From: Neolewinella aurantiaca
Lineage (GTDB): Bacteria > Bacteroidota > Bacteroidia > Chitinophagales > Saprospiraceae
Direction of reading: 5' to 3'
Length of the DNA stretch: 64,000 nt
Assembly: GCF_008014675.1 (NCBI RefSeq)
Contig: NZ_VOXD01000002.1
Location: forward strand, 62,001 to 126,000
A program made the translations under genes and the position numbers. The notes below the pieces were generated by a model. It was not told the DNA's origin and ran no database searches. It worked only from the letters and a program-made list of their open reading frames with translations. Of this stretch, positions 3,282 to 63,086 are shown one piece after another; within the stretch, counting starts at the first letter, position 1; every line of letters begins with the position of its first letter.

Positions 3282-4373
3282 GTGCCCACAATATTTCATA
3301 CCATAATAATCGGCGCAGGTCAGGCAGGTCTTGCAGCGGGCTACTTCCTGAAGGAAGCCGGAGAGGATTTTTTGATTCTCGATGCCCACGAGCGCGTAGG
3401 AGACAGTTGGAGGAAACGCTGGGAAGGCCTGAGGTTGTTCAGCCCTCAGCGCTATAACGCGCTTCCGGGGCTTACCCCGCCATTCGGTGAATGGCATCTT
3501 CCGTCGAGGCTTGAGTTGGCGGATTATCTGGAAGATTATGCTCGTCATTTCGGGCTCCCTGTCCGCAATCTTTGCACCTGCGTCCGCGCCCGGATAAAAA
3601 ATGATTCTCCTGAGACTGGTGAGAGGACATGGGAAGTCACAACGAACGACGGAACCTTTCTGACCCGTAACCTGATCGTCGCTACCGGAGCCTACAGTAC
3701 CCCCACAAAGCCAGAAGCCATAGCTGATTCTTTCCCGGCTGATATCCGGCAATTGCACAGCTCTGAAATCCGGAACGTAGCCGATATCGCTGACGCGGAA
3801 ACCGACGTACTCGTGGTGGGTGCCGGAGCCAGCGGCCAGCAACTCAGCCGTTTGCTCCTCGATACGGGGGCCAGCGTTACGCTGGCCGGCCCGACGATGG
3901 GCAACCTCCCCCGCAGCTTTTTGGGTAAGGACATTTACTGGTGGCTCTATAACACGGGGGTGATTACTTTACGGACCGATAAGTTTCCCGGCAAGCTGCT
4001 GCTCAACGATGGCGCCGGTGATGTTACGGTCGGTGAGCCACCGCTCCCCGCCGCAATCAGGCGGATAAAAACCCACATTGCACGCTACAGTGAAGGGAGC
4101 CTCCGTTGCAAGTGCGAGAAAACTGCACCGGACCCTATCGAATGGCCAAAATCCGGCAAAAAAGGTGTCGTACTGTGGTGTACCGGCTACAAGAACCTAT
4201 ATCCCTGGTTACCAACAGAAATGATGGACGAGGATGGCCGCCCGTTGCTGGATTCCGGGCGCAGCGAAAAGTACCCGGAAGTAACTTTCATCGGCCAGCC
4301 TAACCTGTTAAGACCCAGTTCAAGCCTCGTAGGTGGCGTGGGAAGGGACGCAAAAGCTCTGTTAAGTAAATAA
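3282..4373 (+). CDS. Flavin-containing monooxygenase-like NAD(P)/FAD oxidoreductase
   Basis: About 363 residues. Two dinucleotide-binding motifs are visible: an N-terminal FAD site (IIIGAGQAGLAAG) and a mid-protein NADPH site (VLVVGAGASGQQ). A C-terminal WCTGYKNLYPWL resembles the ATGY motif of CzcO/FMO-type enzymes. The substrate is unknown. I prefer the GTG at 3282 because it places the GxGxxG near residue 9; an in-frame GTG at 3246 would add 12 residues. It is 40-76 bp after the FadJ-type gene and may be co-transcribed. The dispersed 19 bp repeat lies inside it at 3572-3590, read as Cys-Thr-Cys-Val-Arg-Ala. Confidence 0.85.
   Translation: MPTIFHTIIIGAGQAGLAAGYFLKEAGEDFLILDAHERVGDSWRKRWEGLRLFSPQRYNALPGLTPPFGEWHLPSRLELADYLEDYARHFGLPVRNLCTCVRARIKNDSPETGERTWEVTTNDGTFLTRNLIVATGAYSTPTKPEAIADSFPADIRQLHSSEIRNVADIADAETDVLVVGAGASGQQLSRLLLDTGASVTLAGPTMGNLPRSFLGKDIYWWLYNTGVITLRTDKFPGKLLLNDGAGDVTVGEPPLPAAIRRIKTHIARYSEGSLRCKCEKTAPDPIEWPKSGKKGVVLWCTGYKNLYPWLPTEMMDEDGRPLLDSGRSEKYPEVTFIGQPNLLRPSSSLVGGVGRDAKALLSK
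3572..3590 (-). repeat. Dispersed 19 bp repeat, copy 1 (in CDS)
   Basis: Reads TTGCACCTGCGTCCGCGCC on the plus strand, a full match to the reverse complement of the consensus GGCGCGGNCGCAGGTGCAA. It lies inside the FMO-like gene. Confidence 0.8.
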
Positions 4374-4375
4374 TG

Positions 4376-4400
4376 TTGCCAGATTAAGTATGTAACTTTG
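4376..4400 (+). promoter_or_regulatory. Bacteroidota-type promoter for the SDR gene
   Basis: A perfect TAACTTTG (TAnnTTTG) -7 box lies at 4393-4400 with a TTG at 4376-4378. The 14 bp spacer is shorter than usual. It would give an untranslated leader of roughly 80 nt before the ATG at 4489. Confidence 0.45.
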
Positions 4401-4488
4401 CAACACCTTAAGAGGGCTTTCATTGAATTGGACCGCTTTTTACTATCCAAACCCTCTGTTTTCGTTCAGATCTTGTACTGCCGTACCA

Positions 4489-5399: not shown

Positions 5400-6317
5400 A
5401 TGAAAGTAAAAGTAGCCGTTCTGCAGTATCCTCCTGTTTTTTTCGATAAGGAGGCTACGCTGGCCAGAACAGAACAACTCGTAAGTGAGTACGCCACCGG
5501 TGGTACTCAATTGATCCTTTTTCCCGAATCCTTTATTCCTGGTTATCCGCGTGGCTTTGGCTTCGGAGCCGTTATCGGCAGCCGGTCGGCCGAAGGGCGA
5601 CAGTTGTATGCCGATTATCTGGCCAACAGCATCGACCTTGAATCAGAGGACCGGTCACGCCTGGAGGCCATCGCTCGGAAAAATGAGGTTTACATTGTTA
5701 TCGGTGTCACTGAACGCATAGGAGGTTCTTTGTACTGCTCGATGCTTTACCTCTCGCCCGACAATGGCCTCGAGGCGGTCCACCGGAAAATAAAGCCGAC
5801 GGGAAGTGAGCGCCTGATTTGGGGGGAGGCTCCGGTGTACGGTAAGAAGGGCGCGGGCGCAGGTGCAAACATGGCTGCCGTACAAACCGGATTCGGAAAG
5901 ATCGGCGGTCTCATCTGTTGGGAAAACTACATGCCCCTGGCCCGAATGGCGCTGTACGAACAGGGAGTACAGTTGTACCTGGCCCCTACGGCAGATTCCC
6001 GTGAGGTGTGGACTTCGACGCTTCGCCACATCGCCCTGGAGGGCCGGTGCTTCGTGCTGGGGTGTAACCAGTATTTTACCAAATCGATGTACAGCCCCGA
6101 ACACCAGGCCCTGGCCCGTGACGAGCCGGAGGAGATGTGCCCGGGAGGGAGTATCATCGTATCGCCGCTTGGGGAGGTGATTGCAGGTCCGCTGGTGGGT
6201 AAGGCAGGAGCTTTAGTGGCCGAACTTGACCTCGATGACATCCCCCGAGCGAGGCTCGATTTCGATGTAGTCGGGCATTACGCCAGACCGGACCTTTTCC
6301 GGTTCCAATGGCGTTGA
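5400..6317 (+). CDS. Nitrilase / carbon-nitrogen hydrolase
   Basis: 305 residues with the nitrilase triad: Glu in FPESFIPGYP, Lys in HRKIKPTGSERLIWG and Cys in GGLICWENYMP. The true-nitrilase-like context (ERLIWG, CWENYMPLAR) suggests a nitrile or cyanide-type substrate, acting in the cytoplasm. The ATG at 5400 places the first beta strand (VKVAVLQYPP) directly at the start. Between ERLIWG and the next beta strand there is an enlarged loop (APVYGKKGAGAGANMA). Its Gly-Ala part is encoded by a copy of the dispersed 19 bp repeat at 5850-5868, which looks like an in-frame insertion in a surface loop. Confidence 0.92.
   Translation: MKVKVAVLQYPPVFFDKEATLARTEQLVSEYATGGTQLILFPESFIPGYPRGFGFGAVIGSRSAEGRQLYADYLANSIDLESEDRSRLEAIARKNEVYIVIGVTERIGGSLYCSMLYLSPDNGLEAVHRKIKPTGSERLIWGEAPVYGKKGAGAGANMAAVQTGFGKIGGLICWENYMPLARMALYEQGVQLYLAPTADSREVWTSTLRHIALEGRCFVLGCNQYFTKSMYSPEHQALARDEPEEMCPGGSIIVSPLGEVIAGPLVGKAGALVAELDLDDIPRARLDFDVVGHYARPDLFRFQWR
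5850..5868 (+). repeat. Dispersed 19 bp repeat, copy 2 (in CDS)
   Basis: Exact match to GGCGCGGNCGCAGGTGCAA inside the nitrilase gene, translated as Gly-Ala-Gly-Ala-Gly-Ala in a loop longer than usual for the family. Confidence 0.8.
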
Positions 6318-11742: not shown

Positions 11743-14700
11743 TTACCTGATGACCAGGGGGCGGACGGCGGTTCCTGCTCCGTCGCTGACCCTGAGGAAG
11801 TAAAGCCCGGCCGTAACCTGCCCTGCTTCCATAGCCAAACTTTGCACCCCGCTGCCGAGCCGTCCGCTGAACATTCGTTGAATCACCCGGCCACTCACGT
11901 CCAGCAAATCAATGTTGACGTTGGAGGATGATTCGAGCTGGAATTCAACCTGCACTGCGCCCTCAGTAGGGTTGGGGCTGACGCTGAGGCCGAGCCGGGC
12001 CACCTGGCGATCGTTGAGGCCGGTAGGTAACTGGCCACCCATACGCTCAATAGGCTGATCGAGGTAGAGGTGGAACTCGCCAGGTTGAAGACTAATCTCT
12101 AAGTTCGGATCACTGACCGAAATCGTCTCTCCACTGAAGTAATCGTACCAGTCTCCGCTGGTGGGGAATACACCGGTTGCGGTAAGTTCACTTACCCCGA
12201 AATTTCCCACGATGGCTACCTCACCGTCATCGCCGCTAAGGTTGAAAATTTTAATGAAATCAGCGAGCTGCTGCTTAGTCACTTCGCCGTGGAAGAAATC
12301 AAAGTTATTACGGAGGTACAACAGGTCAGAGATCACGTTATAAACCTCGGCCCGGTCAAAGTCATTCCGGTAGTCCCAGCGAATTGGTTTTGGGTCAACG
12401 CGGCAGTTGGTGTTGATGCCGCCACCAGGACAGTAATTGATGCTGTAGTCGTAGCCCAGTTCACCAAACTGCCAGAGCATTTTAGGGCCAGGAACGGTGT
12501 AAAAGAAGGCGCTGGCGAGTTTCAGCCGGTCCAGCCCGGTGTCCTCTTCCTGAATGTTGTAATCGCCCGCAGAATTGGCAAACGCTTCGTTCTTGTATTG
12601 CATACGCTCTTCGTCGTGGCTTTCCATGTAAGCAACCAGGTTGTTGACGGTGAAGCCCCGGTTGCCGGCCAGAACGTTGCGCAGGTTACTGGTATAGCCC
12701 ATAGACGCCTCTGTATAATCGTCGTGGGGCGTAAATCCGGACCAGAAGTACATGCCGTTGCCGTAATTGGCCAGTTCGTTTTCTTCAGCACTCACGGCGA
12801 GATGCTCCATGATGACATAGCACTCATCATCAACGGACCAAAGATGGTCTGCATAGTCTTTGATGATGGCAATCCGGCTGGCGTCGTACTGGTTCCACAT
12901 GTTGACATCGTCGCCGGAAAAGACCTGTGTGAACCCTTTACTTAGGTCAAAACGGAAGCCGTCTACACGAAACTCTTCCTGCCAGTACCGGGTCGTTACC
13001 TTGAGGTATTCTTTGGTGAGCGGATGCTCGTGGTTCATGTCGAAACCAACGTTGAATGGATGACGCGCGACCGGGTTGAGGTAGGGGTTGTCGTCAGCTG
13101 GCCGCGAGGCTGCATCGTTCCACCACATGCGCGCCAGCGGGCTTTGCCCAAAAGCGTGGTTGTACACTACATCCATAATCACCGCCATGCCGCGGGCGTG
13201 GCAGGCGTCGACGAAAGTTTTGAAGTCTTCGGGGTTGCCGTAGTATTTGTCCAGAGCCATGTGGAAGCTCACGCTATAGCCCCAGCTGTTGTTGTTCTCG
13301 AACTCAGTTACGGGCATCAGCTCAATGGCGTTCACGCCGAGGCGTTCGAGGTAGTCGAGCGTATCGGTCAGTGATTTATAGCTGTGGTCTTCCAGGAAGT
13401 CACGAATGAGCAATTCGTAGACAACCATTTTTTTAGGGTCCGGACGGTCGTAATCCGGTTCGGTCTGCCAGTTGAAGGGGGCGACGGAGCGCCGGTGCCA
13501 GGTGAGGATACCAGAGGCACCAGCAGGGTAAGTTGGGATTCCGCTGAAGGTTTCTTCACTGATGAAGCGATCGTTGTTAGGGTCGAGTACGAGGGTAGAG
13601 TAGGGGTCCGGTTGCAGAATCTCACCGTCGATCAGGTAATTGTAGATGAGGTCTCCGTCGATCTCTGCTGCCGGAATCAATAACCAGAATGTCTCTCCAT
13701 CGACTGATTTTTTCATTCGGCCGCTTGCGGTGGGAGACCATGCATTGAAGTTGCCGAGCACAAAAACGTCGGTTTTTCCCGGAGCCCGCAGCTGGAGAAG
13801 GACGTCGCCGTTGTCCATGTTGTTGGCACCGGGTCTGAAACCGGCCGGAGGGTCAGCGACTTCGGGCTGCCCGGTAATGAAGGTGACGTAATCGGTCGCG
13901 GTCTCTCCTTCCAGCGTGCTGGTGAGGGTGTAGGTCGTGACTGCTCCAGCGGGTAGGGTGACGTCGGTGTTAAAGTCGGTGCCTGCGTCGGAGAACACGA
14001 TCTGGCTCCCGTCTGAGACAGTAAGATCCGAAGAAATGTAGGAGGTTCCCGAGAGGGAGACAAGCTCTCCTTCGGTTGCTTCGATTACCTCCTGGTCCGG
14101 GGAAGTGAAGAGTGCTTCCAGGCGGGCCTCTACGGTGAACTCATCGGAGACTTCCTCGCCGTTGGCGGTAGCAGTTGCACGGATAACGTGTGTACCACTG
14201 GTTTGCAGGCTTATTTCTTCGCTTAGCTCAGTACCAACCGCGGAGTAAATAAGGGTTTCGTTATCGTAGACCTCAATGGTTGCTTCGGTGGTGGTGCCTA
14301 CAGTGATTGGCAAAGGTTTGCCGAGCGGGTAAGCGACTCCTCCGGGGTCGCCAACGAGGTTGAGACTGAGGGCTCCGCCTCCGGCGGAGATGTCTACATA
14401 GATGTCAGCTCCCCCGGTGGCCTTACCTTCAAGGGATCCGTCGGCATTACGAAATACAAAAGCAATTTGCTGGATTTCTGTTCCTTCGGGAACACTGAAA
14501 TATTCACGGACGCTCGGGGTGAAAGTGTAGGTATAGGTGTTCGGTTGGCCTGCTACGGGAGTCAGTTGCCAGTCAGGGTTGGCCACTCCCCATTCCGTTT
14601 GCACGAATTTCCAGTCACTGAGGCTGGTGCTGTTATTAGTGATTACACCGGTGTGGAGGTAGATGTCGCAGCCGCAGTTTTCAAGGCCGGCGGTACCCTG

Positions 14701-14838: not shown

Positions 14839-14953
14839 GTACACTACTTTAAATCGAGTAAAACGTATGAATCCCGTTTTCAATTCGGAAAATGGGCAGG
14901 GTAAAGTTAGCTAAAAAAACAAATGTGAAACTGAATGCGGGGAACACAAAAAA

Positions 14954-14983
14954 AGCACCCACCAGCTACTGCTGATGGGTGCT
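14954..14983 (-). terminator. Rho-independent terminator for the RRM gene
   Basis: Stem AGCACCCA/TGGGTGCT with an inner CAG/CTG pairing, followed on the minus strand by a run of seven T. It lies 28 bp after the stop of the RRM gene and could also work in the plus direction (CTTTATTTT). Confidence 0.8.
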
Positions 14984-15010
14984 CTTTATTTTACTGGGAG
15001 TAGCGTAGCG

Positions 15011-19980: not shown

Positions 19981-20091
19981 GCGGGCAAGATAGTTGGTTG
20001 ATCCCTTATTTTGTTGCTCTTCCGGAACAGACCGCCTTTTAATTCGGGGGTAGTTGGCCGGGCACCAGAGGAGCTTGCCCGAAAACGTTCT

Positions 20092-20110
20092 TTGCACCGG
20101 CGGCCGCGCC
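20092..20110 (-). repeat. Dispersed 19 bp repeat, copy 4
   Basis: TTGCACCGGCGGCCGCGCC, one mismatch to the consensus, intergenic. On the minus strand it is followed by AAGAACGTTTTCGGG, matching the extended T-rich flank of other copies. Confidence 0.75.
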
Positions 20111-22464: not shown

Positions 22465-22483
22465 GGCGCAGACGCAGGTGCAA
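22465..22483 (+). repeat. Dispersed 19 bp repeat, copy 5
   Basis: GGCGCAGACGCAGGTGCAA, one base from the consensus, in the gap between the convergent LysE-like gene and murB. Confidence 0.75.
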
Positions 22484-22522
22484 GGCACGGGTGCCGGGAC
22501 ATGGGATGGGCGCCGGAAAAAG

Positions 22523-23619: not shown

Positions 23620-25452
23620 TTAATCTAACTGAAACTGGAGTCTTGCGAGCGCCGAGTAGGCTCCGTCGGTAACTGCGTTGAGCTCGTCGTGGGTGCCTTG
23701 TTCTACAATGCGTCCGTTTTCAATCACATAGATACGGTCAACTTCGCGGATGGTGGCCAGGCGGTGAGCAATGATGATGGATGTTCGGCCCTCCATCAGC
23801 CGGTCGAGTGCTTCCTGTACAACGCGTTCGCTCTCGGCGTCGAGGCTGCTGGTGGCTTCGTCGAGCAGGAGGATCGCCGGGTTTTTAAGTATGGCGCGCG
23901 CAATGGCTACACGCTGGCGCTGGCCGCCACTCAGCTGGATGCCACGATCTCCGACTATGGTGTCAAAGCCTTCCGGGAATTTTTCGATGAACTCCAGGGC
24001 GTTGGCCTGGCGGGCGGCTTCACGAATGGCTTCTTCGGTAGCGTTCAGAGCTCCGTAAGCAATGTTTTCGCGGATACTACCTCCGAAGAGGAGAACTTCC
24101 TGAGGAACAAGTGCAAGGTTGTCGCGGAAGTGATGAAGGTCGTAGTCTTCCACGTTTTTACCATCTACCGTGATACTACCGTCGCTGATGGGGTAGAAGC
24201 GAAGCAGCAATTTCATGATGGTTGACTTTCCGCTTCCGGAAGCTCCTACGAGAGCGATCTTCTCTCCTGGTTTGATGGTGAGATCAATTCCCTTGAGGAC
24301 CTGAATGTCGGGGCGGGTCGGGTAATTGAAATGGACGTTGCTGTAGTGAATGTTTCCCTCGATTTTGGCGGTGGAACTGTTGCTGACGGAGGAACTACGT
24401 GTTTCAACCTCCATTGCACCGGCGTTTGCGCCCTCAGTTTCTTCACTGTCCAGGATGTCGACCACCCGGTCAGAAGCACCGAGTGCTGAAACTATTTCAC
24501 CGTAAAAATTGCCAAGGCTGGCGATAGAGCCTCCGATCAGCGCCGTGAAGATGACGAACGAAAACAAGTCGCCTTCGGGAAGGGAACCCGCCTGAACAAG
24601 TAAAACGGCGCGGTAAATGATGTAGAACAGCGAACCGAACATCACCGTGACGATGAACGAAGAGAAAAGGCCGCGGGCCGAGGCTGTTTTCAGCGAAATC
24701 CGAACGGTTTCATCGATGCTTTGGCCGTAGCGGGAGCGTTCGAACTCTTCGTTGGTATAAGCTTTAACGGTTGTAATACTGCTGAGGCTTTCCTCTACGA
24801 TGACATTAGACGCGGCCAGTTGCTCCTGGCGGGCTTTTGTCATTTTACGCACATACTTACCGAAGAACATTGCCGCAACCACCACCACGGGAAAGATAGC
24901 CAGGCTGACGAGCGCAAGCTTGGTCATCGTCCAGAGGATGAAAATGATCGCTCCGGTCAGAATAATGAGTTGGCGCAGGAACTCGGCGAGGGTGAGCGAG
25001 AAGATTCCCTGGATCTGGGTGATGTCGTTAGTTATCCGGCTGGTAATTTCCCCCACGCGGGTCCGTTCAAAGAACGGAATCTGAAGATGAAGGATTTTGC
25101 CGTAGAGGTCTTTCCGCAGGGAAGCCATCGCTTTCTCGCTTACTTCGGCCTGCAGGCGAACGCGCAGGAAACTCAGTGGAGCCTGAATGATGAGGAGCAC
25201 AGCCAAGAGGGTGAATATTTCGGTCACCGTAAGATCGTATTTCCCTTTGCCGCTGATCACGTTCAGGGCTTCCCCCGGCAACTGCAACAGCACAAGGAAC
25301 ACCAGGCTGCTGATCGCAAGGATGATGAAGCTGAGAATAAACTTCCACCGGTAAAGCCAGACGTAATCGAAGATGCGTAAGCTCCGGTTGAACTTTTCCT
25401 TTTGGGTGCGCCCTGAATCAGGGCGGTCGGTTTTGTCAGTTGTTTTAGCCAT
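23620..25452 (-). CDS. ABC exporter, fused membrane and ATPase domains (MsbA/ABCB type)
   Basis: 610 residues from the ATG at 25452 (MAKTTDKTD). An ABC transmembrane domain with six helices (about residues 30-320) is followed by a nucleotide-binding domain. The latter has Walker A GASGSGKST, signature LSGGQRQRVA, Walker B ILLLDEATSSLD and switch His in IIIAHRLATI. It works as a dimer, probably exporting lipids, lipooligosaccharide or drugs. A Ser/Thr/Glu-rich linker (EETEGANAGAMEVETRSSSV) sits between the domains. The substrate is not known. Confidence 0.92.
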   Translation of the reverse strand: MAKTTDKTDRPDSGRTQKEKFNRSLRIFDYVWLYRWKFILSFIILAISSLVFLVLLQLPGEALNVISGKGKYDLTVTEIFTLLAVLLIIQAPLSFLRVRLQAEVSEKAMASLRKDLYGKILHLQIPFFERTRVGEITSRITNDITQIQGIFSLTLAEFLRQLIILTGAIIFILWTMTKLALVSLAIFPVVVVAAMFFGKYVRKMTKARQEQLAASNVIVEESLSSITTVKAYTNEEFERSRYGQSIDETVRISLKTASARGLFSSFIVTVMFGSLFYIIYRAVLLVQAGSLPEGDLFSFVIFTALIGGSIASLGNFYGEIVSALGASDRVVDILDSEETEGANAGAMEVETRSSSVSNSSTAKIEGNIHYSNVHFNYPTRPDIQVLKGIDLTIKPGEKIALVGASGSGKSTIMKLLLRFYPISDGSITVDGKNVEDYDLHHFRDNLALVPQEVLLFGGSIRENIAYGALNATEEAIREAARQANALEFIEKFPEGFDTIVGDRGIQLSGGQRQRVAIARAILKNPAILLLDEATSSLDAESERVVQEALDRLMEGRTSIIIAHRLATIREVDRIYVIENGRIVEQGTHDELNAVTDGAYSALARLQFQLD

Positions 25453-29612: not shown

Positions 29613-29631
29613 GGCGCGAGCGCAGGTGCAA
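29613..29631 (+). repeat. Dispersed 19 bp repeat, copy 6
   Basis: GGCGCGAGCGCAGGTGCAA lies 5 bp after the lipoprotein stop. It is followed by AGCAGGTTTAAAAGC, one of the best extended flanks. Confidence 0.8.
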
Positions 29632-29702
29632 AGCAGGTTTAAAAGCAAAGGCTTGTAACCCGGATGTTGGAATCGGCTGATAGTCGCTGGTCAGCATCCA
29701 GG

Positions 29703-30809
29703 TTACAGGCCTTCCTTTTTGGGAGAAAACCGGTCGATGTTTACTTCGGCAGGAATAGGGCTGCCGTTCAGGATTGCCTCCGCCAACCAGCGTGACCCGA
29801 GAGGAGCGAGTGAGCCACCTTTGGTGCCCAGTCCGTTGAAGATCCAGAGGCGGGGGAGCTCGGGGTGCTGACCAATGAACATTCTTCGGTCACGGACAGT
29901 AGGGCGCACCGCTGCCCGGTGGTCGATGATTTCGTATTTCGTGCCGGTAAGGACTTCGGCCAGCCGGTCTTCAAGAAACTTTCGGTTAGCCGGGGTAGGG
30001 GAGTCGTCGGGGAATTTATTCTCGCTGGTAGCTCCCACCCAGTAGGTATCGTCGGAGAGCGGTACCAGAAAAACCCGGTGCTTGAACATTCGGTCGAGGA
30101 CCGGTGCTTCGGTTTTGACGATGAGGACCTCGCCTTTATTTCCGCCGTGCGGCAGGTAGCTGAAATAAGGGTTGAAGCGCGCGCGCCACCCCTCGCAACA
30201 AATAATATGGTCGTAGGTAGCGCTGCTCTTTTGTCCTTTCGTTGCACCTGCGCTGCGGCGCCCCTCACCTGATGCGGGTTCTGCACCGAGTAGTCGTGGT
30301 ACGCCGGAATAGTCGAATCTATCCGTCTTCAACTGGTCGCCGGAAGTGATTCTTTCCCGGAATGCAGCAACCAAACCCGCCACATCGACCCTTGCTGCAT
30401 GACGAACGCCGGCGTAAGCAAAGACCGGAACAGTAAGCACCGGAATACGCCCCGGGGCGGGGTTATCGTCCATATATTCGGGGTAACCGGCGTCTGCTGA
30501 CCGGGCCTGCCAGTCGTTGAGGTCTCCGCGGTTATAGAGTGTACGAATCAGCGGTTGTTCGTGCCAGAAAGTGAGGCCAAGCAACTTTTCGAATTCCAGG
30601 TAGCACGATTTTGCTTCGGGAATAAGTTCGTCGATGCGCCAGCTCTTTACGAAGCGCCGACCGGTGATAGGGTTGATGATTCCGGCAGCTACGGAACTGG
30701 AGGCGGTTTGTTCCGGAGCGTCGATGTAGTGGACTGTATGGCCGGCCAGTTCAAGGCGCCGGCCGGTAAGGGTGCCGGCCAGCCCCTGGCCGATAATCAG
30801 AAATTTCAT
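29703..30809 (-). CDS. FAD-dependent oxidoreductase, DAO family
   Basis: About 368 residues from the ATG at 30809 (MKFLIIGQGLAGTLTG). A GTG at 30830 would add seven residues and overlap the end of the lacI-family gene by 8 bp, hinting at translational coupling. It has the N-terminal FAD motif GQGLAGTLTG, then SSSVAAGIINPITGRRF as in DadA/ThiO-like enzymes, and a C-terminal FNGLGTKGGSLAPL FAD contact. The substrate is unknown; an amine or amino acid is likely. A copy of the 19 bp repeat at 30242-30262 encodes GRRSAGATK in a loop before YDHIICCEGW. Confidence 0.85.
   Translation of the reverse strand: MKFLIIGQGLAGTLTGRRLELAGHTVHYIDAPEQTASSSVAAGIINPITGRRFVKSWRIDELIPEAKSCYLEFEKLLGLTFWHEQPLIRTLYNRGDLNDWQARSADAGYPEYMDDNPAPGRIPVLTVPVFAYAGVRHAARVDVAGLVAAFRERITSGDQLKTDRFDYSGVPRLLGAEPASGEGRRSAGATKGQKSSATYDHIICCEGWRARFNPYFSYLPHGGNKGEVLIVKTEAPVLDRMFKHRVFLVPLSDDTYWVGATSENKFPDDSPTPANRKFLEDRLAEVLTGTKYEIIDHRAAVRPTVRDRRMFIGQHPELPRLWIFNGLGTKGGSLAPLGSRWLAEAILNGSPIPAEVNIDRFSPKKEGL
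30242..30262 (-). repeat. Dispersed 19 bp repeat, copy 7 (in CDS, 2 bp longer)
   Basis: TTGCACCTGCGctGCGGCGCC with two extra bases in the middle, inside the DAO-family gene at what looks like a loop insertion. Confidence 0.65.
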
Positions 30810-39931: not shown

Positions 39932-39950
39932 GGCGAGGCCGCAGGTGCAA
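39932..39950 (+). repeat. Dispersed 19 bp repeat, copy 8
   Basis: GGCGAGGCCGCAGGTGCAA followed by TGAAGGTTTTAAGCAGGCAAG-like flank. Intergenic, right after the hairpin. Confidence 0.75.
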
Positions 39951-40024
39951 TGAAGGTTTTAAGCAGGCAAGAACATCCGGTGAAGTATATCCGCACCGGA
40001 AACATTGCTCTTAAAAAACACACC

Positions 40025-40043
40025 CTGTACCTGCGTCAGCGCC
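40025..40043 (-). repeat. Dispersed 19 bp repeat, copy 9 (degenerate)
   Basis: CTGTACCTGCGTCAGCGCC, three mismatches to the consensus complement, upstream of the PorV-like gene. Confidence 0.45.
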
Positions 40044-44175: not shown

Positions 44176-44223
44176 GGACCGCGCGGCAAGCCGAGGTTCA
44201 ATCGTTGCTCTTTATCCGAATCT

Positions 44224-44242
44224 GTGCACCTGCGACCGCGTC
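44224..44242 (-). repeat. Dispersed 19 bp repeat, copy 10
   Basis: GTGCACCTGCGACCGCGTC, two mismatches, intergenic after hemL. Confidence 0.65.
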
Positions 44243-47275: not shown

Positions 47276-48151
47276 TTACTTACCCGGAAGATCGGTTGTA
47301 ACCTTTGCTCCTGCGGGCTTAGCAAAAGCTTCATCCTCGGTGTCCGGACGGAACTCGTAGTCTTTGACGTAAATGTTGGTGATTACTTCGGTTGGCTTAT
47401 CAGACCAGCGGGTGGTGTAACCCGTCGGTAGGGTAATGCCGTCTACGGTGGTTTTGCCACTGAGGACCATCAACTTTTCCGGAGAATGACCTTCGTCCTT
47501 GAAAAAACCGGGGTAGGAGACGATGTAGTTGAGTGCGTCCATCTGCTTGGTTTCAGGATTGATCCAGAGTACGTAGTAATCACCGTCGGCATCGCCGGTT
47601 CCCTGCTCGTAGGTCACCTTTATCTTGTTGTAAGTGGTTCCTTCCCATTCAGCGTCGGGAAGTTGCTCAAAGTTGATGCCTTCGTCAGCAAGAACAAACG
47701 GCAGGCCAACGAAGTAGTAGGGCGTAAGCGACCAGAAGCGGGGGCTGACGGTGGGCTTCACGTCGGCGGGGGCGTGCCATGCATCCTGGCCATCAAAGCC
47801 GTAGGTGACGCCTTCCTGATTGGCCGAGGTATGTACGGCGCGGGCGTTGACATAATCGTTGAGGATGTAGGAGTCGCGGATCGTTTTGTCGTCGGTGGGG
47901 AGGTACTGGAAGTGGTAGTAGAGTGGGCTCTGGCTGTACCATTTGTCGAGTCCGCCGTGAGCGTCGATGCTGGCGAGTACGAGCTTACCTGCGTCGGTTC
48001 CGCTGAGACGTTCGGTTGCAGCTTCGATTCGTTGGGCGAAGGGCGCAGGTGCAGGCTCAGTTGAAGGAGTAGGTTCTGCTGACTCAACGGCAGTTTCGTT
48101 ACCGCAAGCCATGAAGGCTACGGCGAGAAGAAGGAAGAAAAAATTTTTCAT
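47276..48151 (-). CDS. DUF6503-family lipoprotein
   Basis: 291 residues from the ATG at 48151. The lipoprotein signal has lipobox VAFMACG. A Pro/Ala/Thr/Glu linker (ESAEPTPSTEPAPAPFAQ) follows; part of it is encoded by a copy of the 19 bp repeat. The folded part has SIDAHGGLDKWYSQSPLYYHF and VLWINPETKQMDALNYIVSYP, as in the DUF6503/outer-membrane-lipoprotein-sorting-like proteins of Bacteroidota. No known function; a lipid- or peptide-binding half-barrel is plausible. Confidence 0.78.
   Translation of the reverse strand: MKNFFFLLLAVAFMACGNETAVESAEPTPSTEPAPAPFAQRIEAATERLSGTDAGKLVLASIDAHGGLDKWYSQSPLYYHFQYLPTDDKTIRDSYILNDYVNARAVHTSANQEGVTYGFDGQDAWHAPADVKPTVSPRFWSLTPYYFVGLPFVLADEGINFEQLPDAEWEGTTYNKIKVTYEQGTGDADGDYYVLWINPETKQMDALNYIVSYPGFFKDEGHSPEKLMVLSGKTTVDGITLPTGYTTRWSDKPTEVITNIYVKDYEFRPDTEDEAFAKPAGAKVTTDLPGK
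48035..48054 (+). repeat. Dispersed 19 bp repeat, copy 11 (in CDS)
   Basis: GGCGAAGGGCGCAGGTGCAG, one base longer, in the linker of the DUF6503 lipoprotein. Confidence 0.6.
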
Positions 48152-48987: not shown

Positions 48988-49128
48988 TGTATAATGGTTT
49001 TTTGGTTCTTTGTTGCAACGGGAGCCCGCTTTTCAGAGTTCGGTTTGGCCGAAAAAACTGTTGCAACAAGAGCCTTGCCGCAAGGGGAAATGGAGAGATT
49101 GTAGCCACGGGCAGACCTTAAACACACC

Positions 49129-49147
49129 TTGCACCCGCGCCCGCGCC
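49129..49147 (-). repeat. Dispersed 19 bp repeat, copy 12
   Basis: TTGCACCCGCGCCCGCGCC, one mismatch. On the minus strand the flank GGTGTGTTTAAGG continues the extended motif. Confidence 0.75.
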
Positions 49148-51324: not shown

Positions 51325-51681
51325 GTGGCAAGATCCTCCCGCAAGCATTACATCAACTTCGCTATTTTCGGTCTTTTCAGCCTGACTTTCGCCTCCTTTC
51401 TGGCGGTTGCAGCTTATTATTACTTCACCGACGGAAAGAACATGACCATTGAGTCTTTCGCTCCGGGAGTCCCGGCTTTCTTCCTGTTCTTTCTCGCCAG
51501 GAAAGAGTGGCGAAGCGCCCGTGCAGTTCGCAAAATGGAACGCAGGCCGGTGGCAGATCCCGCCGAAGGCATCGACGAGCTGATGGCTATCGCTGCGCAG
51601 CGGGTGGAAGAGAAGAAAAAGCCGGTCGCACCTTCGGATGCCGAAGGCCATGATACTGCCGGGGAGCCGGTCAGAAAATAA
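51325..51681 (+). CDS. Small membrane protein
   Basis: 118 residues from a GTG at 51325. Two membrane segments (INFAIFGLFSLTFASFLAVAAYYYF and PGVPAFFLFFLARKEW) are followed by a basic helix (RSARAVRKMERRP) and a charged tail. Not recognised. It overlaps the convergent DUF481 gene by 11 bp. It starts 29 bp after the large palindrome. Coding is likely but not certain. Confidence 0.6.
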   Translation: MARSSRKHYINFAIFGLFSLTFASFLAVAAYYYFTDGKNMTIESFAPGVPAFFLFFLARKEWRSARAVRKMERRPVADPAEGIDELMAIAAQRVEEKKKPVAPSDAEGHDTAGEPVRK

Positions 51682-52444
51682 TCCGCAGACCATTTAGCCA
51701 CGTGAAAACCGTTGCCGGAACCTCGGGGAAATCCCGGTTCACGCGCTCATCGTAGGTCAGGGAGAAATTTGATGTGAACCGCAGGGAATTGCTGAAAGTC
51801 ACGGCAACACTAGCCACCGAAGAAATACGGGGGACGGTAAAATCGGGAAGGCGCGGCTGATAATAGCTGGTGCTCGCCAGCGAAATTGTGGGCGTCAGCT
51901 GGGCCCGGATGGTGAAGTAATTGCTCATCCGGTGGTCGCGGTACACGATTTCAGAATCGGTCATTTCATCGTATTCGTGCATGTATAGGACGCCGAGGTA
52001 GGCGCGCGATTGTCCGTTACGGTAGAGCCTCCTCCGGATGCCGCTTCCCACCAGAAAGCGGAGATTGAGGCGTAGCTGCTCGTTGTACTGCACCTGGGTG
52101 AAAGTCTCCCAGCGCCATCCATCCTTTATCTCCCAGCCGTACCGCGCGTGCAGGAACCCGGCGTTGGTTGCGTTATCACCGCTGACCTGTACGAGTTTAT
52201 AATCGCTGAGAAAAAGGACATTACCCCGCTGCCCCAGCCGGTCGAGGCGTAAAGCCCCGCCTACGGTGATAACGGTGTTGTTGTTTTTGGTGAGGCTTCC
52301 GTTTACGTCCAGCTGCCCGAACCAGCCCAGGGAGTCCAGGGCCTTACGCTTGTCTTCGATATTCACGATTTGGGCGCGGGCGCAGGTGCAGGGTGTCAGA
52401 ACAGAGAGCAATGCAAGAACAAAAGCACGGATAAAGAAAATCAT
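51671..52444 (-). CDS. DUF481-family outer-membrane protein
   Basis: 257 residues. The signal peptide ends at about residue 25 (CTCARAQ); its last part is encoded by a copy of the 19 bp repeat. The mature chain starts IVNIEDKRKALDSLGWFGQL. It then runs as amphipathic beta strands (NGSLTKNNNTVITVGGAL, AYLGVLYMHEYDE, NYFTIRAQLTP) of the DUF481/YdiY type. Role unknown. The ATG at 52444 is followed by a well-formed signal peptide. Confidence 0.83.
   Translation of the reverse strand: MIFFIRAFVLALLSVLTPCTCARAQIVNIEDKRKALDSLGWFGQLDVNGSLTKNNNTVITVGGALRLDRLGQRGNVLFLSDYKLVQVSGDNATNAGFLHARYGWEIKDGWRWETFTQVQYNEQLRLNLRFLVGSGIRRRLYRNGQSRAYLGVLYMHEYDEMTDSEIVYRDHRMSNYFTIRAQLTPTISLASTSYYQPRLPDFTVPRISSVASVAVTFSNSLRFTSNFSLTYDERVNRDFPEVPATVFTWLNGLRIIF
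52373..52391 (+). repeat. Dispersed 19 bp repeat, copy 13 (in CDS)
   Basis: GGCGCGGGCGCAGGTGCAG, one mismatch at the last base, in the signal-peptide region of the DUF481 gene. Confidence 0.7.
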
Positions 52445-54269: not shown

Positions 54270-55196
54270 TCATCTGCTCTGAAAAGGAACCGTGAAGCGG
54301 TAAAGGTCATCGGCCGCAACCGTATTGGGGAATACCTTTCGGGCTTCATTTTCGTGTCCTGCCGATGATTCGTAGCGCGTGCTGTAATGCCCGAGTACGA
54401 GTTGCCCAACCCCGGCCGCAAGGGCGGTACGTGCAGCGTCTTTGGCGGTGGAATGCCCCTTGAGGGCAGCATCCTCGGCCATGTCTTCAAGAAACGTAGC
54501 TTCGTGGTACAGCAAATTCACCCCTGCAACATACCCGGCGAGCTCCGGAAAGTATACAGTATCGGAACAATGCGCGTAGCTACGGGGTGGGGGAGGTTGG
54601 GAGACCAAATCAGCGTTGGGGATTACTGTCCCGTCGGGAAGTACGTGGTTGGCACCTGCCTTAATGGCCTTTATTGCAGTGTAGGGGAGGTCGTATTTCG
54701 CAATCGCTTCTTTGCGGATGTTGGCTTCCCGTTGCCTTTCGCGCAGGAGATAGCCATTGGTCTCGATCCGGTGTTGAAGCGGGAAGGCGAAGATTTCGAG
54801 ATCACCGGTGCCAGGCAGCTGAACGGGTGCTTCAGCGCACACGGTATGAAAAATCAGATCGTAGCTGAGCGGGTACTTGTCCAGTTCAAGCAGCGCTTCG
54901 AGGCGCGGCCGCAGGTGCAAAGGGGAGGTAATAGAAAGCGGCCTGGAGCGGCCCTGCATGGATAGTGAGGAAAGCAAGGGAGCTAACCCGAAATAATGAT
55001 CGCCGTGGAGGTGGGTGATCAGAATGTCGGAAACTCTCCCCATGCCCAGTCCTGCTTTCAGTAACTGGCGTTGGGTGTTTTCACCACAGTCAATAAGTAC
55101 GTCCGTTGTCTCCGTGCGCAGCATGGCGGCGGAACAATTCCGGACGGCTGTTGGTGCTCCTCCGGAGGTGCCGAGGAGGATGAGTTCGAAACGCAT
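54270..55196 (-). CDS. rnz: Ribonuclease Z
   Basis: 308 residues. The metallo-beta-lactamase motif HLHGDHYFGL is near residue 63, with later metal ligands in LLYHEATFLED and GHSTAKDAA and the final His in LVLGHYSTRY. It cuts the 3' trailer of tRNA precursors. A copy of the 19 bp repeat is inside it, read as Leu-His-Leu-Arg-Pro-Arg. It lies downstream of the STAS gene on the same strand. Confidence 0.94.
   Translation of the reverse strand: MRFELILLGTSGGAPTAVRNCSAAMLRTETTDVLIDCGENTQRQLLKAGLGMGRVSDILITHLHGDHYFGLAPLLSSLSMQGRSRPLSITSPLHLRPRLEALLELDKYPLSYDLIFHTVCAEAPVQLPGTGDLEIFAFPLQHRIETNGYLLRERQREANIRKEAIAKYDLPYTAIKAIKAGANHVLPDGTVIPNADLVSQPPPPRSYAHCSDTVYFPELAGYVAGVNLLYHEATFLEDMAEDAALKGHSTAKDAARTALAAGVGQLVLGHYSTRYESSAGHENEARKVFPNTVAADDLYRFTVPFQSR
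54902..54920 (+). repeat. Dispersed 19 bp repeat, copy 14 (in CDS)
   Basis: Exact match GGCGCGGCCGCAGGTGCAA inside rnz, followed by AGGGGAGGTAA. Confidence 0.8.
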
Positions 55197-55197: not shown

Positions 55198-55288
55198 GTT
55201 TAGTCTGTTAGGCAGTTAGTTCGTTAGCCCTTCAAAAAGTTGCAGCAAGAGCTCCAACAGACTAACGAACTAACGGGCTAACAAACTA
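55198..55288. repeat. GTTAG-rich palindrome between STAS and rnz
   Basis: Arms GTTAGTTCGTTAG (55215-55227) and CTAACGAACTAAC (55262-55274) are perfect. They are flanked by further imperfect pairing of TAGTTT/AAACTA ends. The pentamer GTTAG is repeated several times on each side. It may end STAS transcription or be a mobile palindrome. Confidence 0.7.
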
Positions 55289-55693: not shown

Positions 55694-55962
55694 GTGTTTG
55701 CGTGGTATTAGTATTTTTAGAGAGCACAAAACGTGCCATATGGCTGGTTTATCCCGCTGCCAATTTACGAAACCCTTAAAAATGGCTTTGAGTTCAGCTT
55801 TACCACAACCAACTAACCCGGAACACGTTCTTTTTATTGGAGAGAGAAATGCGACGGCGATATGTCAGGTATTTTTGTCAGGTCAGTGCGATGGCACGGT
55901 TATTCCTCTTTAGACCTTACATTTAGGTCTCGTTCGCCAAACTTTGCTTCAACGTTCCGACG

Positions 55963-55981
55963 TTGCACCTGCGGCCGCGCC
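55963..55981 (-). repeat. Dispersed 19 bp repeat, copy 15
   Basis: Exact match TTGCACCTGCGGCCGCGCC, intergenic, upstream of clpC. Confidence 0.8.
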
Positions 55982-59846: not shown

Positions 59847-59923
59847 GGTTTTATGTGGGTCTACCTCCATTCAGTAACCTTCAGGCTCCCGAATGGAGGA
59901 TTACTGCTTCTGAAAAGCCTCCA

Positions 59924-59943
59924 TTGCATCCCGCGGCCGCGCC
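59924..59943 (-). repeat. Dispersed 19 bp repeat, copy 16
   Basis: TTGCATCCCGCGGCCGCGCC, one extra base; the minus-strand flank ATGGAGGCTTTTCAGAAGC continues the extended motif. Confidence 0.65.
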
Positions 59944-61363: not shown

Positions 61364-61375
61364 TAACTTTCCCCC
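61364..61375 (+). promoter_or_regulatory. -7 box four bases before the coaD ATG
   Basis: TAACTTTC (61364-61371, one mismatch) then CCCC and the ATG at 61376. Confidence 0.45.
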
Positions 61376-61840
61376 ATGAAAACCGCCGTATTCCCCGGAT
61401 CATTCGATCCCATCACCACCGGCCACGCCGAACTCGTTCGCCGCGCCGTTCCTTTATTCGATAAAATCGTAGTGGCCGTAGGTGTCAACAGCCAGAAGAA
61501 ATATTTATTTCCGCTGGAACAGCGGTTGGAGTGGTTGCAAGCCGTTTTTGCGGATGAACCCAAAGTAGAAGTGGCTAGTTTTGAAGGTCTGACGGCTCAC
61601 TTCTGTAACAAGATCGACGCCAAATACCTGCTCCGTGGCTTGCGGAACGCAAGCGATTTCGATTATGAGAAGACGATCTCTCAACTCAACGACATCGTAG
61701 GGGAAGGGCTGGAGACGGTGTTTCTGATCAGCCAACCGGCGTTCTCACACATCAGTTCCACGATCGTGCGGGAGATCATTAAGGGTGGGGGAGATGCATC
61801 TCCGTTTTTGCCGGAAGGGGTGGAGATTCCTGACGCTTGA
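61376..61840 (+). CDS. coaD: Phosphopantetheine adenylyltransferase
   Basis: 154 residues. Nucleotidyltransferase motif GSFDPITTGHAELVRRA at the N-terminus, and the ISSTIVREI (SSTxVRE) motif near the C-terminus. It makes dephospho-CoA from phosphopantetheine and ATP. The coding region ends 1 bp from the convergent lipoprotein gene. Confidence 0.96.
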   Translation: MKTAVFPGSFDPITTGHAELVRRAVPLFDKIVVAVGVNSQKKYLFPLEQRLEWLQAVFADEPKVEVASFEGLTAHFCNKIDAKYLLRGLRNASDFDYEKTISQLNDIVGEGLETVFLISQPAFSHISSTIVREIIKGGGDASPFLPEGVEIPDA

Positions 61841-61841
61841 T

Positions 61842-63086
61842 TCACCGCCAGCAGACCTCCACGAACTGTTCTCCCTTCTCTGCGCCAACCACCGTTCGGG
61901 CCCAGTAGAGTTTGTTTTCGAACAAAGCAATTTTCGGGAAGCCGGAGGAGCGGGCGGCGGAGGTTTTTGTTAGTTCTTCCCGTTTGACTTCTCCGGCGGA
62001 AGAGATGGTCCAGAGCGTGAGCGAAGCGTCATCGGAGCCTTCTTTTGTGGTGAGCCCGGTGACGTAGGCAGTGCCGTCTTCGGCCAGTTGTAGGTCTACA
62101 CGGCCCAGCGGTGCCTGACCGTCGAGCAGGGTGGGGGCGTTGAAGTTTTTAGTGACGGGGTTGTAGCGGGCGAAGTTGATCTGGGCGCGGTCCGCAGGTG
62201 CAGTGTACCAAACGACGGCAATGTTTCCGGCATCGTTGGCGGCTAACGCGGGGCCGTTGACGGGACAGCCGTTGATTTCCCAATTGTCGGCATGCACTAG
62301 TTTGGGCGTAGACCATTCGTTGCCGGAGGTGGGTTTGGTCACATACGCGATGTCGCGGATCTCGTGCTCGGAGCGGTCGCGGTACGCGACCATGATAAGG
62401 CTGTCGGTGGCCACCGTAGCCGTGTTGCAGCAGTCGCAGACCCGGTGGTCGAGTTCTACGCTGGTGGAATCGGACAAAAGACTGATCGTCCGGAGGGTCA
62501 TCGCTCCGCCGGCACCATGACCGTGGTCGTGACCATCGCCTGCACCTGCGTCCGCGCCCGTATCCTGCTTGGTAAACCGCCCATCCAGCCAGCTCACCTG
62601 TAAGCCACCGCCGGGAAGTGAGGCGGAAGAGAGGAAACCGTGTTCGGCGGATACTGTGTCCTGGTGGAGTTTCCCGGGGAGAGAAGAAGAAAAGGGGAAT
62701 TGCAAATTGTGCATTATATCGTAATCATAAGTCCCCTCACCGGAATACTGTAGCCAGTGGTAGAAGTAGTACGATGACTCCATAAATGAATCGACAGGTA
62801 CAACAGACGGAAAATCGGCCCAGTTGATGAACCAGTTTTCGCCGTATATCTCTAAGTCTGGTCCCATCCATCGATTTCCATCAAACGAATAGATTGCCAA
62901 AGTATCAATATTGCTTCCTGAAGAGTTAACATACGAAAGCCATAATTCAGTTTGACTTTTAGCCAATCTCGGCAAATGCGTCCCAGTAGGCAATTGGAAG
63001 CATTCAGTAGTTGAATAGACAGCATCCTTTTGCTTACAAGTAAGCAACAATAACCCAATAAGAACAGCCCCAATAAATCTAATCAT
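61842..63086 (-). CDS. Sialidase/BNR-like lipoprotein
   Basis: 414 residues. A lipoprotein signal (IGLLLLTC) is at the N-terminus. The chain looks like a beta-propeller: repeated strands such as LWLSYVNSSG, GLQVSWLDGRF, IMVAYRDRSEHEIRDIAYV and IAVVWYTA. A conserved HRVCDCCNTATVA motif is seen in exo-sialidase-like exported proteins. A His/Gly linker (GADAGAGDGHDHGHGAGG), partly encoded by a repeat copy, interrupts the propeller. The first 130 codons are much richer in A/T than the rest, which hints at a mosaic origin. Enzyme activity is not proven. Confidence 0.75.
   Translation of the reverse strand: MIRFIGAVLIGLLLLTCKQKDAVYSTTECFQLPTGTHLPRLAKSQTELWLSYVNSSGSNIDTLAIYSFDGNRWMGPDLEIYGENWFINWADFPSVVPVDSFMESSYYFYHWLQYSGEGTYDYDIMHNLQFPFSSSLPGKLHQDTVSAEHGFLSSASLPGGGLQVSWLDGRFTKQDTGADAGAGDGHDHGHGAGGAMTLRTISLLSDSTSVELDHRVCDCCNTATVATDSLIMVAYRDRSEHEIRDIAYVTKPTSGNEWSTPKLVHADNWEINGCPVNGPALAANDAGNIAVVWYTAPADRAQINFARYNPVTKNFNAPTLLDGQAPLGRVDLQLAEDGTAYVTGLTTKEGSDDASLTLWTISSAGEVKREELTKTSAARSSGFPKIALFENKLYWARTVVGAEKGEQFVEVCWR
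62184..62203 (+). repeat. Dispersed 19 bp repeat, copy 17 (in CDS)
   Basis: GGCGCGGtCCGCAGGTGCAG, one extra base, inside the sialidase-like gene, read as Thr-Ala-Pro-Ala-Asp-Arg. Confidence 0.65.
62540..62558 (-). repeat. Dispersed 19 bp repeat, copy 18 (in CDS)
   Basis: CTGCACCTGCGTCCGCGCC, one mismatch, in the His/Gly linker of the sialidase-like gene. Confidence 0.75.

What the first reader, a model, noticed from the sequence alone, without database searches (positions are those of the whole stretch)
3572..62558. An abundant dispersed 19 bp motif, in genes and gaps, in both orientations
Consensus GGCGCGGNCGCAGGTGCAA is found about 18 times: plus at 5850, 7748, 22465, 29613, 39932, 48035, 52373, 54902, 62184; minus at 3572, 20092, 30242, 40025, 44224, 49129, 55963, 59924, 62540. 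Chance cannot explain this for a near-identical 19-mer in 64 kb. Copies are balanced between orientations and spaced about every 3.5 kb. Eight are in coding sequence and are read in different frames (GAGAGA, CTCVRA, HLRPR, APAPF, ADAGAG). The conserved core is GCAGGTGCA. Hypotheses: an uptake-signal sequence for natural transformation, a binding site for an architectural or repair protein (Chi-like), or a small mobile repeat. I know of no such motif in this group.
Basis: partly seen in the sequence, partly recalled or inferred. Interest (0 to 1): 0.85.

Follow-up and report, generated by a model that had tools for sequence, protein, structure and literature searches.

The report
Polar, strand-tiled self-DNA motif in Neolewinella
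A roughly 20-40 base DNA word is repeated about every 2.5 thousand bases in genomes of one bacterial genus, laid out separately and evenly on each DNA strand and spelled differently in different species, which suggests a directional 'this is my own DNA' signal whose reader is unknown.

Summary
The repeat is real and genome-wide: 661 exact GCAGGTGCAA in the 6.0-Mb genome, 8 for the reversed word. A weight matrix finds 175 copies in a 464-kb sample, 0-3 in five shuffles. High counts of this word occur only in one genus (Neolewinella/Lewinella); 0 of 79 relatives outside it reach them. Species of the genus carry tree-structured dialects. No orthologous alignment shows a motif-length gap (12 of 17 ungapped): substitution, not insertion. 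New finding: each strand is tiled separately (mean 5.3 kb, CV 0.47; random orientation 0.82±0.06), so orientations alternate (139 of 172 neighbours); 13 dialect genomes agree (220 of 316). Strength follows the same-strand gap on the 5' side only. A USS-rich control genome and E. coli Chi lack this pattern. Some phage contigs carry several copies, not alternating. Pilin family: 0 of 21. Against: a rare variant in G014 is strand-biased. Best reading: a polar self-DNA signal read by a strand-tracking machine, Chi-like in action. A polar uptake signal is the main rival. Function is inferred.

The parts
3570..3590 (-). motif copy GGCGCGGACGCAGGTGCAAAG, in FAD/NAD oxidoreductase ORF 3246-4373
   Evidence: matrix score 39.7; Pfam Pyr_redox_3
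5850..5870 (+). motif copy, in carbon-nitrogen hydrolase ORF 5400-6317
   Evidence: score 28.7; PF00795
7748..7768 (+). motif copy (variant GGATGCC end), intergenic
   Evidence: score 20.5
13482..13502 (+). weak candidate copy in ORF 11743-14883
   Evidence: score 12.4, below the 14 cut-off used for most spacing tests
20090..20110 (-). motif copy near the start of ORF 18526-20244
   Evidence: score 41.1
22465..22485 (+). motif copy, intergenic, downstream of MurB ORF 22523-23539(-)
   Evidence: score 36.6; MurB_C
24412..24432 (-). motif copy in ORF 23620-25458; ungapped in G008
   Evidence: score 30.1
29613..29633 (+). motif copy, intergenic; kept in G008 (18 of 21 bases) while flanks are 51% identical
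   Evidence: score 42.9
30240..30260 (-). motif copy in ORF 29703-30830; 2-base gap in G003 and G008
   Evidence: score 21.6
34793..34813 (-). weak candidate copy in ORF 32050-35736
   Evidence: score 14.3
39932..39952 (+). motif copy, intergenic, left half of a facing (+-) pair
   Evidence: score 37.1; the pair folds as an inverted repeat, z -4.0
40023..40043 (-). motif copy, right half of the facing pair
   Evidence: score 37.4
44222..44242 (-). motif copy, intergenic
   Evidence: score 25.4
   Evidence: score 32.4
48036..48056 (+). motif copy in ORF 47276-48250
   Evidence: score 19.8
49127..49147 (-). motif copy, intergenic
   Evidence: score 31.7
52373..52393 (+). motif copy in DUF481 ORF 51671-52444
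   Evidence: score 31.7; PF04338
54902..54922 (+). motif copy in metallo-beta-lactamase-fold ORF 54270-55196; ungapped and kept in G003, G008, G005
   Evidence: score 37.8
55155..55175 (+). weak candidate copy, same ORF
   Evidence: score 10.3
55961..55981 (-). motif copy upstream of a clpC-like gene (56073-58634); a version stands at about the same place in 16 of 21 genus members by eye while flanks diverge
   Evidence: score 31.1; Clp_N, AAA_2, ClpB_D2-small, UVR
59923..59943 (-). motif copy (variant), intergenic
   Evidence: score 17.7
62185..62205 (+). weak/variant copy in ORF 61842-63086
   Evidence: score 12.9
62538..62558 (-). motif copy in ORF 61842-63086; ungapped in G003, absent at the aligned place in G008
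   Evidence: score 32.7

Best explanation
The motif is a polar self-DNA signal, present in roughly 2,260 to 2,460 copies (175-190 matrix hits per 464 kb, extrapolated to 6.0 Mb) and kept by selection or biased gene transfer on the DNA as such. SHOWN: genome-wide abundance, both strands, intergenic enrichment, substitution-type change at the sites compared, species dialects, even tiling of each strand on its own, strength tied to the same-strand gap on one side, several copies in some phage contigs. INFERRED: a machine tracks along DNA in one direction on one strand and responds to the first correctly oriented copy it meets. A second same-strand copy close by is then redundant and decays, which gives even spacing per strand, while copies on the other strand are invisible to it. 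The closest known action is Chi with RecBCD/AddAB (recalled): a polar site that tells an end-processing helicase-nuclease it is on own DNA and switches it from degradation to recombination. Because the strand I call plus is arbitrary, the served side (5' of GGCGCGG...) is the 3' side of the complementary strand TTGCACCTGCG..., the side from which such enzymes arrive (recalled). Phages of these hosts would carry the site to pass as self. Dialects would arise as the reader protein and thousands of sites shift together.
For: Per-strand spacing mean 5268 bp, CV 0.47 against 0.82±0.06 for random orientation on the same positions (0 of 2000 as even); smallest same-strand distance 1069 bp. Adjacent copies alternate, 139 of 172, p 1e-16. 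Sliding one strand against the other keeps most of the alternation (0.757; observed 0.808), so the strands are tiled largely independently. In 13 dialect genomes 220 of 316 neighbours alternate (7 of 13 genomes at p<0.05 alone), mean per-strand CV 0.63 against 0.87±0.04, same-strand gaps under 1.5 kb 15 of 303 against 45±4.5. Strength against the 5'-side same-strand gap: rho 0.213 own (p 0.004, n 178), 0.165 in the 13 others (p 0.006, n 277); 3' side 0.014 pooled (p 0.77); swap test p 0.016 own, 0.061 others, 0.005 pooled. Tailed-phage contigs carry several copies, for example 5 in 14.9 kb of L204; 15 degenerate copies in 10 of 59 viral loci, reversed control 0. Per-strand density is close to that of E. 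coli Chi on its favoured strand in my sample (5268 and 5175 bp).
Against: Known Chi sites are 5-8 bases (recalled); this motif carries about 29 bits over about 40 bp. E. coli Chi is strand-biased (49 to 11) and randomly spaced (CV 0.96), unlike this. Dialect turnover inside one genus is typical of uptake sequences. In the phage loci neighbours do not alternate (17 of 31, p 0.72). In G014 a 22-base exact variant is 23 forward to 40 reverse (p 0.04), 4 to 20 over the first 1.4 Mb of the largest contig (p 0.0015, picked after seeing it), and that subset does not alternate (24 of 48), although all matrix hits in the first 100 kb of the same contig are 15 to 10. A G+T excess 5' of isolated copies in the own genome (t 3.7, n 71) did not repeat in 13 others (p 0.54). 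No reader was identified and recombination genes were not examined.
Confidence: 0.42

Rival explanations
1. A polar DNA uptake (import) signal for natural transformation: DNA is bound and perhaps cut at the motif and one strand is drawn in from there, so that each copy serves the DNA on one side. Uptake-biased transfer spreads and keeps copies (molecular drive) and makes species dialects.
For: Dialects that follow the clpC tree, as for the Neisseriaceae DUS (abstract and two sections of PMC3630211). 38% of copies in the 11% of DNA outside called ORFs (72 of 190). Change by substitution. ComEC in 21 of 21 genus genomes. Riemerella transforms with machinery that includes ComEC and proteins unlike the well-known ones (abstract and sections 19-21 of PMC8459023). 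The 5'-side relation fits a one-sided import.
Against: Copies whose served sides overlap (-+ pairs) should be redundant for double-stranded information, but no cross-strand repulsion is seen: merged CV 0.749 against 0.650 when strands are slid. Phages carry the motif. No type IV pilin family (0 of 21). The Riemerella surface domain DUF5689 is in only 1 of 21 genomes.
Confidence: 0.3
2. An orientation-independent uptake sequence exactly like the Pasteurellaceae USS, with alternation a side effect.
For: Overall density, intergenic enrichment, even spacing and dialects. Even spacing of USS has been reported (passages of PMC1939737 and PMC7811141).
Against: A 2.0-Mb genome with 1270 USS cores shows no alternation (54 of 98) and per-strand CV 0.86 against 0.91±0.07 random (100 exact cores listed). 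Thinning the own motif to 60% would still give 0.66 alternation and CV 0.71. Uptake by H. influenzae is reported not to depend on USS orientation (passages of PMC1939737).
Confidence: 0.08
3. A polar chromosome-architecture or loop-barrier site, or a global regulator's site.
For: Even spacing and alternating orientation would suit loop boundaries.
Against: 118 of 190 copies are in coding sequence, with no orientation preference relative to genes: 55 same, 61 opposite of 116 counted. Copies in phages.
Confidence: 0.1
4. A packaging start (pac-like) signal of a gene transfer agent, each copy starting a headful of about 5 kb in one direction.
For: Polar service of about 5 kb per copy; presence in tailed-phage contigs.
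Against: A phage needs one pac site (recalled), yet these carry several; no gene transfer agent cluster was looked for.
Confidence: 0.05
5. A small mobile repeat (REP/MITE-like).
For: Many dispersed copies in both orientations.
Against: No motif-length gap at any of 17 aligned orthologous sites; no information beyond about -17 to +27; motif kept while flanks diverge; even spacing; two single copies fold no better than shuffles.
Confidence: 0.02

Closest known systems
DNA uptake sequences (DUS) of Neisseriaceae and uptake signal sequences (USS) of Pasteurellaceae
   Same: Hundreds to thousands of short dispersed copies on both strands, in genes and gaps, changing by substitution, with species dialects.
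   Different: Here each strand is tiled on its own and orientations alternate; the USS control lacks this. Different phylum, no type IV pilin family found, copies in phages, a longer two-part motif with a spacer of about 2, 4 or 6 bases (my reading).
Chi sites of RecBCD/AddAB
   Same: Polar action inferred; one copy per about 5.2 kb of the active strand in each.
   Different: Long motif, both strands nearly equal in the own sample, even spacing, genus-level dialects; E. coli Chi is biased 49 to 11 and randomly spaced.
REP/REPIN and MITE repeats
   Same: Dispersed short repeats in both orientations.
   Different: 118 of 190 inside called ORFs, no insertion signature, evenly spaced.
KOPS/FtsK-orienting polar sequences (recalled)
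   Same: Polar, abundant.
   Different: KOPS follow replication direction (recalled); here orientation alternates locally.

Membership tests
DNA uptake sequence (DUS/USS) | Hundreds to thousands of copies, far above chance | tested here: met
   661 exact 10-mers against 8 reversed; 175 matrix hits in 464 kb against 0-3 in five shuffles
DNA uptake sequence (DUS/USS) | Dispersed in coding and noncoding DNA, evolving by substitution | tested here: met
   118 coding, 72 noncoding; 12 of 17 aligned sites ungapped, no motif-length gap
DNA uptake sequence (DUS/USS) | Orientation-independent layout | tested here: not met
DNA uptake sequence (DUS/USS) | Type IV pilin receptor | tested here: not met
   PF07963 in 0 of 21, while it rings in 8 of 14 controls
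DNA uptake sequence (DUS/USS) | Type IV pilus-type ATPase | tested here: inconclusive
   PF00437 matches in 20 of 21 genomes, over the cut-off in 11, but all listed matches are short (up to about 85 of 370 positions, at most 25.5 bits), several at places where one search found clp-like DNA
DNA uptake sequence (DUS/USS) | Raises uptake/transformation of the DNA carrying it | not testable with these tools
   needs experiment
Chi site | Short (5-8 base) single-strand-read sequence (recalled) | tested here: not met
   about 29 bits over about 40 bp
Chi site | Orientation biased with replication | tested here: inconclusive
   own sample 97 plus, 93 minus, alternating within contigs; but a rare exact variant in G014 is 23 to 40 with a regional bias. 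Origin and terminus were not mapped.
Chi site | Polar action | tested here: inconclusive
   statistical polarity only
Chi site | Switches a helicase-nuclease to recombination | not testable with these tools
   needs biochemistry
REP/MITE repeat | Inserted unit, empty sites show gaps | tested here: not met
REP/MITE repeat | Hairpin in each unit | tested here: not met
   2 single copies folded, both no better than shuffles

The most novel reading that the evidence does not exclude
A new class of genome-wide signal: a polar self-DNA mark tiled separately on each strand at about 5 kb. It would be read by a strand-tracking machine not yet described, with species dialects kept in step by reader-site co-evolution and copied by phages as a passport, combining Chi-like action with uptake-sequence-like evolution, in a phylum where I found neither defined.
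Probability: 0.4. Interest if true: 0.95.

Novelty: new variant of a known kind. Interest (0 to 1): 0.85.

Why it matters
I found no report of an abundant self-DNA signal family in the Bacteroidota in searches of one open-access library (listings only, most subscription journals not held). The strand-by-strand tiling is a quantitative law that separates polar, scanning mechanisms from orientation-blind binding, so it gives a direct test of what such motifs are for. The dialects predict barriers to gene exchange between species of the genus, and the phage copies predict a contest over the mark. The dialect set also gives a route to the unknown reader protein by co-variation.

Tried and rejected
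Mobile repeat: rejected, no motif-length gap at 17 aligned orthologous sites. Transcription-polar element: coding copies lie 55 same, 61 opposite to the gene. Replication-oriented site: not supported in the own sample (97 to 93, locally alternating), but left open by the biased rare variant in G014. Type IV pilus route: pilin family 0 of 21; the ATPase family gave short low matches in 20 of 21 genomes, 11 over the cut-off, which I read as P-loops of other proteins. Riemerella-type surface domain DUF5689: in 1 of 21 genomes, G011. Strand composition: a symmetric skew flip at copies (z 6.4 own against matched positions; z from -1.8 to 4.1 in 13 others) appears to come largely from alternating neighbours. 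The one-sided excess left at isolated own copies was mainly T over A and did not repeat elsewhere, so I give it little weight. Exact-core counting weakens or loses the effect (GCAGGTGCAA 29 of 56 alternate; CGCAGGTGC 78 of 113), so comparisons should use a matrix, and the USS control, made with exact cores, is weaker for that. Other genera: samples of four (43, 81, 94 and 100 kb) gave 0, 0, 0 and 1 matrix hits; some overrepresented words there were not followed. Rows dropped from the spacing tests: dialect models of G009, G016 and G020 (drowned by codon composition or too few sites), G003 (42 kb), and G008, G010, G018 (little or no sample); 13 dialect genomes were used.
Full report
What was checked. 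In the whole genome (5,995,659 bases, 104 contigs) the exact 10-mer GCAGGTGCAA occurs 661 times, 323 forward and 338 reverse, against 4 and 4 for the same word read backwards.

Anatomy. From a 464-kb sample (the window, 300 kb of contig 1 and 100 kb of contig 2, not chosen by motif density) a matrix converged on 190 copies at a cut-off giving 5 in a shuffle; 175 remain at score 14, against 3, 2, 0, 1 and 0 in five shuffles and 2 in the reversed sequence. The core is GGCGCGGNCGCAGGTGCARNG, with a T-rich stretch before it and GGTT plus a purine-rich tail after it, about 29 bits in all. Information falls to background beyond about -17 and +28. Two single copies folded no better than shuffles; one facing pair did.

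Placement. 118 copies lie in called ORFs and 72 outside, 0.29 against 1.37 per kb; all six frames are used; orientation relative to the gene is 55 same to 61 opposite. ORF calling was a simple longest-ORF procedure. Merged spacing is more even than random placement with the same coding split: CV 0.725 against 1.01±0.07, 0 of 2000.

Distribution. Of 100 genomes searched for the exact word (own genome, 20 others of its genus, 79 outside), only the genus shows high counts, and there very unevenly: 5 (G011) to 714 (G005). The highest outside is 57 against a control of 14. A relative with a different dialect would be missed by this word. One genus member, G002, has a contig of the same length as a record of Neolewinella agarilytica DSM 24740, and G003 one of the same length as a Lewinella metagenome record. 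Samples of four other genera (43-100 kb) gave 0, 0, 0 and 1 hits.

Dialects. De novo search in 100-kb samples showed that species with few exact copies carry altered versions. Examples: GGGCGCTGCCGCAGGTGC (G014), GGCGCGGTCGCGGGTGC (G019), GCGGGNNCGCAGGAGCA (G017), GGCGNCGGAGCGCAGG with a spacer two bases longer (G007, G001), and TGGCTNNCAAAGTAGCAA (G011). For G009, G016 and G020 only partial words were found. On a clpC tree neighbouring species share dialect features. Upstream of clpC 16 of 21 genus members have a recognisable version at about the same place although flanks have diverged; G001, G007, G009 and G012 look eroded and G011 has none (my reading by eye).

How copies arise. With the window aligned to G003 and G008, 17 site comparisons were possible (7 and 10 of 23 sites); 12 are ungapped, 5 have gaps of 1-3 bases (30240 twice, 55961 in G003, 59923 and 62538 in G008), and none has a gap the length of the motif. 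At 54902 the copy is kept in G003, G008 and G005 without gaps; at 62538 G008 lacks it. This is substitution, not insertion, though the number of sites is small.

The orientation law. Read along the genome the orientations alternate: 139 of 172 neighbours at score 14 or more (p 1e-16), and no same-strand pair lies within 1 kb. Each strand taken alone is evenly spaced (mean 5268 bp, CV 0.47; 0 of 2000 random-orientation trials as even). Sliding one strand against the other keeps alternation at 0.757±0.027 against 0.808 observed, so independent tiling of the two strands explains most of it. Beyond that, facing (+-) pairs within 300 bp are in excess: 18 against 5 expected; -+ pairs 3 against 5. 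In 13 dialect genomes 220 of 316 neighbours alternate, 7 of the 13 at p<0.05 on their own, among them G011 (20 of 24); G015 shows none (9 of 17). Mean per-strand CV is 0.63 against 0.87±0.04, same-strand gaps under 1.5 kb are 15 of 303 against 45 expected, and close pairs are 22 +-, 8 -+ and 2 same. I take this as a sign that the dialects, even the extreme one of G011, are one system.

Polarity. Copy strength rises with the distance to the next same-strand copy on the 5' side only: rho 0.213 (own, n 178), 0.165 (13 others, n 277), pooled p 7.5e-5; 3' side rho 0.014. Exchanging the two sides at random reaches the observed difference in 1.6% of trials (own), 6.1% (others) and 0.5% (pooled). Coding sites are weaker; with that in the regression the 5' term is 0.145±0.047 and the 3' term 0.018±0.046. 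Four kinds of gap were tried in the own genome and in the 13 others together; the 5' same-strand gap stood out in both.

Controls and contrary results. A 2.0-Mb genome with 638+632 USS cores, found among 369 genomes of another class, shows 54 of 98 alternation and per-strand CV 0.86 against 0.91±0.07. Only 100 exact cores of that one genome were listed; thinning the own motif to 60% would still give 0.66 and 0.71, but the own exact 10-mer alone shows nothing (29 of 56). E. coli K-12 Chi in 250 kb: 49 to 11 strand bias, CV 0.96 on the favoured strand. In G014 a 22-base exact variant occurs 23 forward and 40 reverse (p 0.04), 4 to 20 in the first 1.4 Mb of the largest contig, and neighbours within this subset on that contig do not alternate (24 of 48); the matrix hits in the first 100 kb of that contig are 15 to 10 and alternate 17 of 24. 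The bias of this variant is unexplained.

Phages. 59 stretches (57 contigs) of viral sequence hold the exact 18-mer. Ten of these 59 hold 15 further degenerate copies at score 20 or more, reversed control 0. L221 encodes a tape-measure protein whose relatives include Flavobacterium phages; L204 and L207 encode tail-fibre-like proteins. L204 has five copies in 14.9 kb. Several same-strand spacings are 3.3-3.6 kb, but over all viral loci neighbours do not alternate (17 of 31). The stretches were picked for having one exact copy, so only the additional copies count.

Machinery. ComEC is in 21 of 21 genus genomes. The pilin N-terminal family is in 0 of 21 while it rings in 8 of 14 controls. The pilus-type ATPase family matches in 20 of 21, over its cut-off in 11, but the listed matches are short and at most 25.5 bits, and several sit where one search found clp-like DNA, so I read them as P-loops of other proteins. 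Riemerella anatipestifer transforms with ComEC, DprA, ComF, RecA and four unusual proteins (PMC8459023, abstract and sections 19-21); the domain of one, DUF5689, is in 1 of 21 genomes here.

Papers. Seen: PMC3630211 (abstract, introduction, DUS dialects section), PMC8459023 (abstract, three sections), passages of PMC1939737, PMC2346458 and PMC7811141, abstract and outline of PMC5217627; the rest only as listings. Chi and KOPS properties are recalled.

Weighing. Orientation-blind uptake predicts redundancy between copies whatever their orientation; the data show redundancy only within a strand. A strand-tracking reader predicts this, including the one-sided strength relation. Copies in phages suggest the mark protects or favours DNA inside the cell. 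Length and dialects argue against an ordinary Chi and for a fast-evolving reader of double-stranded DNA. I therefore put a Chi-like polar self-signal first (0.42) and a polar uptake signal second (0.30). No reader protein or phenotype has been shown.

Noticed in passing
window 55863-55904: Upstream of the clpC-like gene a block TGTCAGG-N4-TTTGTCAGG...TGGCACGGTTATT stands in recognisable form in all 21 genus members, G011 included (by eye; position). It looks like a promoter/operator with a direct repeat.
   Followed up: partly
window 15009-15463: Low-complexity tract with 22 overlapping repeat copies in steps that are multiples of three, inside ORF 14975-15469.
   Followed up: no
window 55201-55288 and 26472-26522: AT-rich imperfect inverted repeats.
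   Followed up: no
G011:C115:8691-10592 (L191-L193): Three DUF5689 matches in a 708-aa frame in G011 only, the species with the most divergent motif.
   Followed up: no
L216, L217, L220, L221: Viral contigs from different samples share two motif copies about 3.58 kb apart, suggesting one phage group that keeps the motif.
   Followed up: partly
G014:C14:1-1420000: The exact variant GGGCGCTGCCGCAGGTGCCNGG is 4 forward to 20 reverse here, against 13 to 12 in the rest of the contig; unexplained.
   Followed up: partly
own genome, isolated motif copies: The motif strand is T-rich and A-poor over about 750 bp on the 5' side (t 3.7, n 71); not seen in 13 other genomes.
   Followed up: yes
G349: In the class-wide control the reversed word TGGCGTGAA occurs 185 times in this genome against 26 for AAGTGCGGT, possibly another dispersed motif.
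   Followed up: no
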